Positions 12,886 to 28,932 of a stretch of 35,418 nucleotides of DNA are shown here, piece by piece. Source of the DNA: Acetobacteraceae bacterium (lineage in GTDB: Bacteria; Pseudomonadota; Alphaproteobacteria; Acetobacterales; Acetobacteraceae); contig JAIYDD010000111.1 of assembly GCA_027487675.1 (NCBI GenBank), positions 1 to 35,418 on the forward strand. The letters are read 5' to 3'. The notes under the pieces were generated by a model. That model made no database searches, was not told the origin of the DNA, and worked only from the letters and a program-made list of their open reading frames with translations. The first letter of the stretch is position 1. Each line of letters begins with the position of its first letter. Both the position numbers and the translations under genes were made by a program.

Positions 12886-12906
12886 GGGTCGCCCGGGAGG
12901 GGCTCT

Positions 12907-12967
12907 GGGCGCGGCAGCGCCGCGCCCCCGATACCCACCCCGCCAAGGGCCGAAAGGCCCTTGGAAC
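12907..12967 (+). repeat. Paired-hairpin element 3' of the DHDPS-family gene
   Basis: Hairpin 1 is GGGCGCGGC-AGC-GCCGCGCCC (12907-12927). The linker is C-rich (GATACCCACCCCG). Hairpin 2 is CCAAGGGCC-GAAA-GGCCCTTGG (12943-12964), with a GNRA-type loop, followed by AACCC. It starts 21 bp after the stop and has the orientation of that gene. Confidence 0.7.
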
Positions 12968-12984
12968 CCGGGTGTTGGACGCGC

Positions 12985-14378: not shown

Positions 14379-16082
<1,704 letters not shown>

Positions 16083-16133
16083 CCACCCCCGTCCCCCTGG
16101 CCGCAGCGCGCATCGCGTCCTAGGCTCTGCGAG

Positions 16134-16252
16134 GTCCGGTTCTGCGCTGGCGGTCTCCGGGAGGGCTCTGCCCTCCCGGACCCTCCCGCCGGGGACCGTG
16201 GCGGTCCCCGGACCCCAGCCCTCGGTTTTGTCGCTGGTTGGGGCGGGGGCCT
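16134..16252 (+). repeat. Paired-hairpin element, left arm of a long inverted duplication
   Basis: Hairpin 1 is CCGGGAGGGC-TCT-GCCCTCCCGG (16157-16179) and hairpin 2 is CCGGGGACCG-TGG-CGGTCCCCGG (16189-16211), followed by ACCCC. The conserved tail, positions 16230-16252, begins GTCGCTGGTTGGGG. It lies 3' of guaB and in guaB's orientation. The mirror copy is at 16282-16399. Confidence 0.8.
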
Positions 16253-16281
16253 CACGCGCGCGCCATCGCCACGCGCACGCC

Positions 16282-16399
16282 AGGCCCCCTCCCCAACCAG
16301 CGACCAACTGATGACGGGTCCAGGGGCGTCACGCCCCTGGTGGGTGGGGTCTGGGGAGGGCAAAGCCCTCCCCAGGGGCCGACAGCACCGAACCAGGAC
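16282..16399 (-). repeat. Paired-hairpin element, right arm of the inverted duplication
   Basis: On the minus strand the order is GTCC-GGTTC-like head, hairpin CTGGGGAGGGC-TTT-GCCCTCCCCAG (16375-16351), C-rich linker, hairpin CCAGGGGCG-TGA-CGCCCCTGG (16340-16320), ACCC, then a 23-bp tail matching the left arm at 22 positions. The stems differ from the left copy but remain fully paired. A 29-bp spacer (16253-16281) separates the arms; the 340-bp intergenic region holds no gene. Confidence 0.8.
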
Positions 16400-16422
16400 G
16401 TTGCACAGCCAAGAGGCCGGCG

Positions 16423-17505
16423 ATGCGTGTTGCAGTCCTTGGGGGTGGGAATGGCGGCTTCGCCGCGGCGGCGGATTTCGTCGAGGCGGGGCATGAGGTG
16501 CGTCTGTGGCGCACTGATGCGGCCGAGGCGGCGCGGCAGCGCGCGGCGGGTGGTGCGATCCGGCTGAAGGATTCGCGCGGCGAGCGGGGGGTGGTGCCGG
16601 CGCTGGTGACGGCCGACGTGGCGGAGGCGGTGTCGGGGGCGGAGCTGGTCTTCGCGCCGGCGCCGGCGACGACGCATGAGGCATTGGCGCCGCGCCTGGC
16701 GCCGCTGCTGCAGGACGGGCAGGTGGTCTTCCTCGCCCCCGGCACGCTGGGGACGGTGCTGCTGGCGCAGGCGCTGCACCGGCATCGGCCGGGCGCGCGC
16801 GTGGCCTTCGCGGAGACGGGCACGCTGCCCTGGCTGGCGCGCAAGCATGGGCCGGACAGTGTCGCGATCACGGTGCGGGCGAAGCATCTGCCGGTGGGCG
16901 TCTTCCCGCTGGCGCTGGCCGATCACGCGCAGGCGGTGATCGCGCGCGCCTTCCCGGGGGTGACGCGGCCCTGTGGCGATGCGCTGTCGGGTGCCTTGAT
17001 GAATGCGGGCCCGATCATCCATCCGCCGCTGATCACGATGAATGCCGGTCCGCTCGAGCATTTCGAGAAGTGGGACATCCACAAGGAGGGCACGCAGCCT
17101 TCGACGCGCCGCGTGACGGATGCGCTGGATGCCGAGCGCATCGCGATCCGCGAGGCGCTGGGCTATGGCGCGCCGCATTTCCCCTTGGCCGATCACTACG
17201 CGAAGGAAGGTGCCGAGTGGATGTATGGCCGCGGCAGCCATGACCGGCTGACCGACAGCGGCGACTGGCGCGAACGCATCGTGCTGACCGGGCACCGCTA
17301 CATGCGGGAGGATGTGCGGCTGGGCCTGTCGCTGCTCTGCGATGCCGGGCGGGTGGCCGGCGTCGCGACGCCGCTGGCCGCGGCGTTCCTCGCGATCGGC
17401 GGCGCAATCTGCGGCGAGGCGTTCTGGGGGGCGCGCACGCTCGGAAGCTGTGGCCTTCCGGCGGATGCGGCGGCGCGGGCGAAGGTGCTGGCGCATGGCT
17501 TCTGA
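16423..17505 (+). CDS. NAD/NADP octopine/nopaline dehydrogenase family protein
   Basis: 360 residues. An N-terminal Rossmann domain (MRVAVLGGGNGGFAAAADFV, GGGNGG; then FAPAPATTHEALAP and VFLAPGTLGTVLLA) is followed by the helical opine-dehydrogenase C-terminal domain from about residue 185 (ALMNAGPIIHPPLITMNAGP, with the conserved His; WDIHKEGTQPSTRRVTDALD; YGAPHFPLADHYAKEG). Relatives reversibly join or cleave amino acids and 2-oxo acids; in soil bacteria they often act in the catabolic direction. It overlaps the next gene by 11 bases and so is translationally coupled to a second dehydrogenase and a Bug receptor, suggesting uptake and oxidation of one substrate. The substrate is unknown. Confidence 0.88.
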   Translation: MRVAVLGGGNGGFAAAADFVEAGHEVRLWRTDAAEAARQRAAGGAIRLKDSRGERGVVPALVTADVAEAVSGAELVFAPAPATTHEALAPRLAPLLQDGQVVFLAPGTLGTVLLAQALHRHRPGARVAFAETGTLPWLARKHGPDSVAITVRAKHLPVGVFPLALADHAQAVIARAFPGVTRPCGDALSGALMNAGPIIHPPLITMNAGPLEHFEKWDIHKEGTQPSTRRVTDALDAERIAIREALGYGAPHFPLADHYAKEGAEWMYGRGSHDRLTDSGDWRERIVLTGHRYMREDVRLGLSLLCDAGRVAGVATPLAAAFLAIGGAICGEAFWGARTLGSCGLPADAAARAKVLAHGF

Positions 17506-22682: not shown

Positions 22683-22967
22683 GTGGCCGAGCCTGTCATC
22701 CTGCGCGGCGGGGACGACGATACGCTCTGGGCGGTGATTGCCACCGCCGGGAAGCGCAGCAGCGTCGCGAACGTCTATCGCAGCCGCGCCGATGCGCTGG
22801 ACGACAGCGCCTGGCGGGCGCAGCAGGTGCGGGCCTATGAGGATTTCCTGCGCCGGTCGCGCCAGCCGGTGCCGCACTATTCCGTCGCGCCGATCCGCCG
22901 CGCCGACCTGCCCAAGAAATGGAGCCCGCTGCCGGCTCTGGGGTTCCTGCGCGGGCAGTTAATCTAG
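22683..22967 (+). CDS. Small hypothetical protein
   Basis: 94 residues from GTG 22683, reading VAEPVILRGGDDDTLWAVIA, with AAGGGG directly upstream; a TTG at 22668 is an alternative. The sequence is soluble-looking, with a Lys/Arg-rich C-terminus (RRSRQPVPHYSVAPIRRADL and PKKWSPLPALGFLRGQL). No family is recognised. It is divergent from the YfcG-like GST. The stop codon TAG is part of the CTAG that begins a MITE-like insertion, so the original 3' end may have been preserved by target duplication. Coding status is moderately likely. Confidence 0.5.
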   Translation: MAEPVILRGGDDDTLWAVIATAGKRSSVANVYRSRADALDDSAWRAQQVRAYEDFLRRSRQPVPHYSVAPIRRADLPKKWSPLPALGFLRGQLI

Positions 22968-23000
22968 CAGGCTGCGGAAATTTGCCGGCTGAAGAAGGCA

Positions 23001-23055
23001 GCGGGAGGGCGCTGCCCTCCCGCACCCACCCGCCAGGAAGCTGAGTTTCCTGGAC
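23001..23055 (+). repeat. Paired-hairpin element inside the MITE
   Basis: Hairpin 1 is GCGGGAGGGC-GCT-GCCCTCCCGC (23001-23023), the linker is ACCCACCCG, and hairpin 2 is CCAGGAA-GCTGAGT-TTCCTGG (23033-23052) followed by ACC. It has the architecture of the copies outside the MITE. Confidence 0.7.
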
Positions 23056-23098
23056 CTTCCTGAAGTTTATGAGATATATCAATAACTAAGGGGAGATG

Positions 23099-23147
23099 CA
23101 GGAACATCAGGTTCCTGCCGGGGTTCTCGAGGGGCGGAGCCCCTCGA
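23099..23147. repeat. Second hairpin pair inside the MITE
   Basis: CAGGAAC-ATCAG-GTTCCTG (23099-23117) and TCGAGGGGC-GGA-GCCCCTCGA (23127-23147), separated by CCGGGGTTC. These may be the opposite-facing half of the element. Confidence 0.55.
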
Positions 23148-23191
23148 CCTTTCCCTTTGCTTCCCGAGGCGAATTTCCGCAGCCTGCTAGA

Positions 23192-28607: not shown

Positions 28608-28850
28608 GCATCGGCCCCCGTCATCGGCGCCGCGGGCCGGCCCGGCGATGCCGTGGTCCGGCGGAACGTCGGATGGACGGGTTCAAGGAGCGACGCGGTG
28701 CCGGAAGGACGCCCGCGTGTTGCTATCTTGTTCCTGTATCGCGCCGCCGTCCAGCGAAAACCGCGCCGCCGCTGCGGCCGCGGCGTCGCCGCCCGGCCAT
28801 CGCCGGGGCGCGGGTCCGGCCCGGCACCGCGCGCCCCCGCACCCCGGGAT

Positions 28851-28907
28851 CCAAGGGCCTTCCGGCCCTTGGCGGGGAGGGCATCGGGAGGGGCGGCGCC
28901 CCTCCCG
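28851..28907 (-). repeat. Paired-hairpin element 3' of the ABC receptor gene
   Basis: On the minus strand: hairpin 1 CGGGAGGGGC-GCC-GCCCCTCCCG (28907-28885), linker ATGCCCTCCCCG, hairpin 2 CCAAGGGCC-GGAA-GGCCCTTGG (28872-28851), then ATCCC. It lies 26 bp after the stop of the minus-strand gene and in its orientation. Hairpin 2 is nearly identical to the copy at 12943. Confidence 0.7.
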
Positions 28908-28932
28908 GGCCATCAGCCGCACCCCCGCCCGG

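What the first reader, a model, noticed from the sequence alone, without database searches (positions are those of the whole stretch)
16134..16399. Long inverted duplication with covarying hairpin stems between guaB and the opine-dehydrogenase gene
Two arms of about 119 bp face each other around a 29-bp spacer. Each arm contains a head (GTCC-GGTTC), hairpin 1, a C-rich linker, hairpin 2 with ACCC, and a 23-bp tail that matches at 22 positions. The stems of hairpin 2 are CCGGGGACCG and CCAGGGGCG: the sequence changed but pairing stayed perfect, and hairpin 1 shows the same. Compensatory change of this kind implies selection on structure, either of an RNA or of a DNA cruciform. No named family is known to me for it.
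Basis: partly seen in the sequence, partly recalled or inferred. Interest (0 to 1): 0.75.

Follow-up and report, generated by a model that had tools for sequence, protein, structure and literature searches.

The report
Flipping palindromic repeat at gene ends
The sequence after guaB is one of dozens of copies, in this genome, of a mobile palindromic repeat that tends to sit at the 3' ends of genes in bacteria of the acetic-acid family; its hairpin stems change on both sides together and some copies have turned around in place, which looks more like a DNA-copying effect than proof of a new RNA.

Summary
In detail: two arms, each with two hairpins, face each other around a central stem at 16134-16399. 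It is one of at least 40 places in the genome; its double-hairpin arm gives at least 145 matches. Arms occur in 15 of 15 genomes of the genus, 59 of 150 of the family, and 2 of 189 other genomes drawn over the class. Clusters lie mostly at gene 3' ends: 50 convergent, 53 co-directional, 3 divergent, 9 unresolved. Covariation is strong, including an 8-bp segment that differs between copies yet pairs at 271 of 280 positions within copies. Selection on an RNA is not shown: G-U is not favoured over A-C, 8 of 17 double changes have no G-U step, and orthologous copies are inverted in place at 4 of 8 clearly decided head-to-head sites. That combination is a published footprint of template switching. 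I file it as a new variant of the REP/BIME/MITE kind, without RAYT in the genus or GTAG/CGTC tag. A sister family in the same genome is an IS5-type MITE carrying the same arms. A bidirectional 3'-end role is plausible, untested.

The parts
16134..16155 (+). outer head of the left arm, short degenerate terminal inverted repeat (GTCCGGTTC...)
   Evidence: read off the sequence; resembles 16380-16399 inverted; other copies share the core GTTGCGCTGGTGGC to varying degree
16156..16180 (+). hairpin 1, left arm
   Evidence: R1 match 16154-16216, 64.8 bits
16189..16211 (+). hairpin 2, left arm, followed by ACCCC
   Evidence: the exact 23-mer is at 20 places in the own genome
16230..16251 (+). left half of the central stem (GTCG, 8 variable bases, then a G-rich run)
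16252..16282 (.). 31-nt central loop, found in both orientations among copies (22 and 13 of 35)
16283..16304 (-). right half of the central stem
16320..16340 (-). hairpin 2, right arm
   Evidence: R1 match 16314-16377 on -, 76.9 bits
16351..16375 (-). hairpin 1, right arm
16380..16399 (-). outer head of the right arm
   Evidence: read off the sequence
14556..16082 (+). guaB (IMP dehydrogenase) upstream; the element lies downstream of its stop
   Evidence: PF00478 E 6.2e-161; gene script
16423..17505 (+). opine-dehydrogenase-like gene downstream, co-directional
   Evidence: PF02317 E 8.6e-29; ORF list
22964..23190 (.). copy of the sister family in the window: IS5-type MITE (22968-23186) with CTAG at both edges, carrying the same double-hairpin arms

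Best explanation
It is one copy of a dispersed, insertional palindromic repeat of Acetobacteraceae, of the REP/BIME/MITE kind. The unit is a double-hairpin arm: hairpin 1, an ACCC-rich linker, hairpin 2, then ACC. Two arms are usually joined head to head around a central stem. Shown: many copies lie at gene 3' ends; the sites tested in one relative are empty; stems covary; some orthologous copies, and central loops, are found inverted in place. Inferred: stem pairing and inversion are produced largely by DNA-level template switching between the inverted arms during replication, which rewrites one arm from the other and flips what lies between. Inferred, weaker: the symmetric structure is kept at 3' ends because it is harmless there and may serve as a bidirectional transcript-end structure (termination or protection of mRNA ends). 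How the window's family moves is unknown. Its sister family in the same genome is a MITE with the ends of an IS5-family element, whose YTAR target can include stop codons.
For: Copies and spread. Location: of 115 clusters 50 convergent, 53 co-directional, 3 divergent, 9 unresolved, against 22/84/38 in 144 background gaps of at least 100 bp; convergent odds ratio 5.0, p 4.9e-8; divergent 0.08, p 1.7e-7; 94 of 115 have a stop codon within 40 bp of, or overlapping by up to 60 bp, the outer hairpin. Insertion: at the 6 own sites with both flanks found in 1.2 Mb of G010, none of the 6 gaps holds an arm match at E 0.01; one (L059) looks by eye like a decayed copy. None of 14 other genus genomes has an arm near guaB. 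Covariation. In-place inversion with collinear flanks: L197/L215, L227/L228, L040/L199, L038/L045. Concerted change: 17 two-sided Watson-Crick replacements against 23 one-sided among 562 stem pairs; about 0.55 expected if sides change independently. Sister MITE. Arm homogenisation and spacer inversion are named for template switching in the abstract of PMC8604942.
Against: No target-site duplication or clean end was found for the window's family, and no transposase for it. At 4 of 8 clearly decided head-to-head sites the orthologues are direct; of 14 single-arm pairs 12 are direct and 2 undecided. Purifying selection could also keep stems: paired positions differ less than unpaired ones (61 of 1124 against 105 of 732; counts). 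One own copy lies between two transport-permease genes (PF00528) that abut in G010, which speaks against a strong terminator there. No T-run terminator signature in the window element. No expression data.
Confidence: 0.72

Rival explanations
1. Structured RNA under selection: the hairpins act in transcripts (bidirectional terminator, mRNA 3'-end shield or sRNA), and covariation comes from compensatory substitution under selection.
For: 3'-end position and convergent enrichment, strong covariation, stems more conserved than unpaired parts, several sites kept across species.
Against: G-U not in excess over A-C on the transcript strand (30 against 40, p 0.28; low power); 8 of 17 double changes have no G-U step; in-place inversions; no T run.
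Confidence: 0.3
2. Classical REP/BIME mobilised by a RAYT (Y1 tyrosine transposase).
For: Head-to-head dimers, high copy number and 3'-end position are as described for REPs (PMC3733652).
Against: PF01797 not found in 15 of 15 genomes of the genus, most of them drafts, while the control search finds it in 5 of 14 known genomes; no GTAG tag in the arm consensus.
Confidence: 0.05
3. A dedicated site-specific recombinase inverts the elements.
For: Whole-element inversions with ends just outside hairpin 1; inversion of Correia elements is on record (cited in PMC10969869, passage).
Against: Breakpoints seem to vary: in L034/L049 hairpin 1 looks exchanged between sides while hairpin 2 does not, and loops alone appear flipped. 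No recombinase was searched for, so this is not excluded.
Confidence: 0.12
4. Assembly artefact: assemblers mis-orient the segment between inverted repeats.
For: Most genomes here are drafts.
Against: The outer hairpins of the two arms are not identical, so no long identical inverted repeat bounds the flipped stretch; the seven genomes concerned have 10 to 60 contigs.
Confidence: 0.06

Closest known systems
REP / BIME repeats (GTAG and CGTC super-families, PMC3733652)
   Same: short hairpins, head-to-head dimers, high copy number, predominantly between convergent and co-directional genes close to stop codons; CGTC families lack a known transposase
   Different: arms carry two hairpins with an ACCC-rich linker, hairpin 1 with a 3-nt loop, no GTAG or CGTC tag in the consensus; that paper reports CGTC repeats missing in Acetobacteraceae (passage)
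IS5-type MITE (sister family in the same genome)
   Same: same double-hairpin arms, about 219 bp, palindromic, many at stop codons
   Different: has clear TIRs (CAGGCTGCGGAAATT) and YTAR duplications, which were not found for the window's family
Correia repeat enclosed elements (Neisseria)
   Same: mobile intergenic repeats reported to undergo inversion (PMC10969869, passage)
   Different: no sequence comparison was made
RIME (Rhizobium intergenic mosaic element) and mitochondrial double-hairpin elements
   Same: repeats with two palindromes (recalled; RIME and the second name came up only as search terms)
   Different: not compared by sequence

Membership tests
GTAG REP with RAYT | unpaired GTAG tag next to the stem | tested here: not met
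   61-arm alignment, read by eye: the unpaired conserved motif is ACC(C) after the hairpins
GTAG REP with RAYT | RAYT (Y1 transposase) in the genome | tested here: not met
   PF01797: 0 of 15 genus genomes, own included
CGTC REP | CGTC tag, 8-9 bp stem with A-T at the first two positions, loop 4-5, CCA tail (as described in PMC3733652, passage) | tested here: not met
   compared by eye with the arm consensus
REP / BIME in the wide sense | many copies, 3'-end intergenic position, head-to-head pairs | tested here: met
MITE | terminal inverted repeats plus target-site duplication | tested here: inconclusive
   window family: degenerate heads, no consistent duplication in 30 copies; sister family: met
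Rfam RNA family | score above a family's gathering threshold | tested here: not met
   none in the element; the only gathering match in the window is a tRNA
Intrinsic terminator | G+C hairpin followed by a T run | tested here: not met
   0 found at 15900-16600; one relative's copy, L050, does have a T run
Correia element | sequence homology to Correia repeats | not tested
   no reference sequence compared
RIME | sequence homology to RIME | not tested
   no reference sequence compared

The most novel reading that the evidence does not exclude
These bacteria carry a large natural set of invertible palindromes that flip in place and rewrite their own stems at high rate through a DNA-level process (template switching or an unknown recombinase), so that very strong covariation arises without selection on any RNA.
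Probability: 0.25. Interest if true: 0.75.

Novelty: new variant of a known kind. Interest (0 to 1): 0.5.

Why it matters
Covariation is the usual proof of a functional RNA. Here is a bacterial repeat family with strong covariation in which some of the same loci also show in-place inversion, no preference for G-U over A-C, and many pair changes with no G-U step. That makes it a ready test case for how far template switching, rather than selection, creates covariation. It is also a repeat found across much of Acetobacteraceae, a family in which CGTC repeats were reported missing (PMC3733652), and its sister MITE shows how a YTAR target can place a hairpin element exactly at stop codons.

Tried and rejected
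RAYT-driven REP: rejected, PF01797 not found in 15 of 15 genus genomes. Rfam: nothing above gathering in the element; the low-E microRNA matches lie below gathering and I take them as effects of a G+C-rich palindrome. Plasmid-borne repeat: no match in 72,556 plasmid records. Target-site duplication for the window's family: none consistent over 30 copies. Intrinsic terminator by T run: none in the window element. Transcript-strand G-U test for RNA selection: negative, low power. Named genomes: the 80 guaB loci gave one arm match, L118, E 4.4e-4, so they did not help; at the own genome's density few would be expected. Literature: the listings showed no paper on this repeat; only PubMed Central open-licence papers were searched, and one search listed 10 of 1,103. 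Papers: PMC3733652, abstract, passages and section 15; PMC10969869, passages; PMC8604942, abstract; PMC8794818, abstract and opening text; others, listings only. Recalled, not from a call: that IS5-group elements favour YTAR; RIME and mitochondrial double-hairpin elements.

Full report
What is there. The stretch 16134-16399 lies between guaB (14556-16082, PF00478) and an opine-dehydrogenase-like gene (16423-17505, PF02317). It holds two arms, each with two hairpins, around a central stem and a 31-nt loop; coordinates are in the parts list. It matches its own reverse complement at 74% over 291 bases and folds at -224.5 kcal/mol, z -13.85.

It is a repeat family. In the own genome (5.18 Mb, 288 contigs) the stretch has 75 matches on both strands, at 40 places; 40 of 243 first-look candidates were scored, so this is a lower bound. 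I fetched all 40 (30 as loci, 10 by place) and aligned 35; five fragmentary copies (L062, L063, L066-L068) were dropped. Nearly all of the 35 show the layout hairpin 1, hairpin 2, central stem, hairpin 2', hairpin 1'; exceptions are L065, whose right arm has no hairpin, and L026, whose left arm is shortened. Left and right arms differ in a way shared by most copies. Some copies carry extra inserted hairpins (L012, L015, L028, L030, L060).

The arm as a unit. A script found 76 arms with two hairpins in own and related loci (45 own); 61 remained after removing near-identical ones. They gave alignment A1 and covariance model R1. Because these arms were chosen for having hairpins, the 96.8% of cells paired is biased upward; the two-sided changes are not explained by that choice alone (111 cells against 29.0 +- 4.1 in shuffles and at most 19 in slid structures; the number of further pair types, 21 against 20.4, does not exceed shuffles). 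R1 matches 145 of 150 scored candidates in the own genome, 15 of 15 genomes of the genus with 9 to 145 matches each, 59 of 150 genomes and 42 of 102 genera of the family, own genus included (stricter filters, at most 35 candidates scored per genome), and besides the own genome 2 of 189 genomes drawn over the class, one match each (at most 27 scored per genome). The family is Acetobacteraceae judging by the best named guaB relatives (Roseomonas, Siccirubricoccus, Belnapia); no call named the genus.

Where copies sit. Loci that repeat a place were left out; one search was given 61 of the relatives' loci, leaving out repeats, the short L044 and the chance hits L047 and L048. 50 clusters lie between convergent genes, 53 between co-directional, 3 between divergent, 9 unresolved. 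In 400 kb of the own genome, taken from contigs that bear elements, the 144 gaps of at least 100 bp split 22, 84, 38. Convergent sites are enriched (odds ratio 5.0, p 4.9e-8), divergent sites depleted (0.08, p 1.7e-7); own copies alone give 7.3 and 0.11, relatives alone, against the own-genome background, 3.4 and 0.05. The outer hairpin lies a median of 21 bp from the upstream stop codon, and 41 of 53 co-directional clusters are nearer to the stop than to the next start. The gene finder tends to start genes late, so distances to starts are overestimates, and a few of the relatives' clusters are orthologous to each other. The pattern is the one described for REPs (PMC3733652 section 15).

Mobile. 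At the 6 own sites whose two flanks were both found in 1.2 Mb of relative G010, none of the 6 gaps holds an arm match at E up to 0.01, although 28 matches occur elsewhere in that 1.2 Mb; the L059 gap looks by eye like a decayed copy. Near guaB none of 14 other genus genomes has an arm (best E 0.12), so the window's copy is special to this lineage among those sampled. Other sites are kept between species. No consistent target-site duplication was found in 30 copies, and no RAYT in 15 of 15 genus genomes. A second family in the same genome is clearer: elements of about 219 bp with TIR CAGGCTGCGGAAATT, 45 forward and 42 reverse TIR matches, edges of the form YTAR, and the same double-hairpin arms. 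One lies in the window at 22968-23186 between two CTAG. The same ends, one with a mismatch, bound a 1.3-kb element in G011 with an IS5-family transposase (NF033581, E 2.8e-80). 9 of 23 placements of this MITE, several cut by contig ends, sit exactly at a stop codon, as expected if YTAR targets include TAG and TAA.

Covariation, and what it means. In the 35 aligned copies an 8-base segment of the central stem differs widely between copies (27 distinct left halves) and pairs at 271 of 280 positions within copies against 48% across copies; 26 of 35 copies pair fully there. Over 24 positions 775 of 840 pair, against 640 +- 9 when right halves are dealt out at random, maximum 680 in 20,000 shuffles. 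Three results bear on the cause. First, over arms at co-directional genes G-U on the transcript is not commoner than A-C (30 against 40, p 0.28): no sign of RNA-specific tolerance, at low power. Second, in 17 orthologous pairs, picked from the closer ones, 562 stem pairs could be compared (10 with gaps set aside): 520 unchanged, 17 changed on both sides to another Watson-Crick pair, 2 changed on both sides otherwise, 23 changed on one side; independent change predicts about 0.55 of the first kind. Eight of the 17 are transversional and have no G-U step. Stems were defined on one member of each pair, which favours that member. Third, some orthologous copies between collinear flanks are inverted: L197/L215 (92% identical inverted, 80% direct), L227/L228 (95%, 77%), L040/L199 (89%, 76%), L038/L045 (88%, 84%; score 77 against 38). 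At a score margin of at least 30, chosen after seeing the scores, head-to-head sites split 4 inverted (these; L199 is inverted against L216 as well, while L040 and L216 are direct) and 4 direct (L031/L051, L206/L354, L196/L207, L332/L351). The script's own count, at a margin of 10 and with repeated rows for one site, is 7 inverted, 10 direct, 5 undecided. Single arms: of 14 pairs 12 direct, 2 undecided. In L034/L049 hairpin 1 looks exchanged between sides while hairpin 2 does not. The 31-nt central loop occurs in both orientations, 22 and 13 of 35 by a best-fit assignment; the mean difference between direct and inverted scores is 6.8 against 2.9 for shuffled loops. Arm homogenisation plus spacer inversion is what the abstract of PMC8604942 names for template switching between inverted repeats, and template switching has been proposed to create and maintain RNA stems (abstract of PMC8794818). 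I therefore prefer a DNA-level cause for much of the covariation, without excluding selection.

Function. Symmetry, 3'-end position and enrichment between convergent genes fit a bidirectional transcript-end structure, as proposed for REPs. Against a strong terminator: no T run in the window element, and one copy (L025) lies between two transport-permease genes (PF00528) that abut in G010. This step is inference.

Filing. It works like a BIME or MITE. It is not a GTAG or CGTC REP by the features tested, and MITE membership is inconclusive for the window's family. It is a new variant of a known kind.

Noticed in passing
window 22964-23190: IS5-type MITE between two CTAG, with the TAG stop codon of the left gene at its edge, carrying the same double-hairpin arms as the finding.
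   Followed up: yes
window 12903-12969, 28846-28910, 2653-2709: Further matches to the double-hairpin model in the same window, each between convergent genes by the gene script; the last is weak (E 0.009).
   Followed up: partly
L312:356-1655 (G011): IS5-family element whose ends match those of the sister MITE.
   Followed up: yes
L025:1488-1753: Element copy between two transport-permease genes that abut in G010; TGA is present at both edges.
   Followed up: partly
L012, L015, L028, L030, L060: Extra hairpins inserted inside arms, such as GGGCGCGGCAGTGCCGCGCCC, pointing to modular growth.
   Followed up: no
G000 contig ends such as C216:1-222 and C178:18500-18517: Several contigs of this draft end inside the sister MITE, so it probably limits the assembly.
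   Followed up: no
flanks of own copies: The spacers outside hairpin 1 are G-rich on the left and C-rich on the right, extending the palindrome outward.
   Followed up: no
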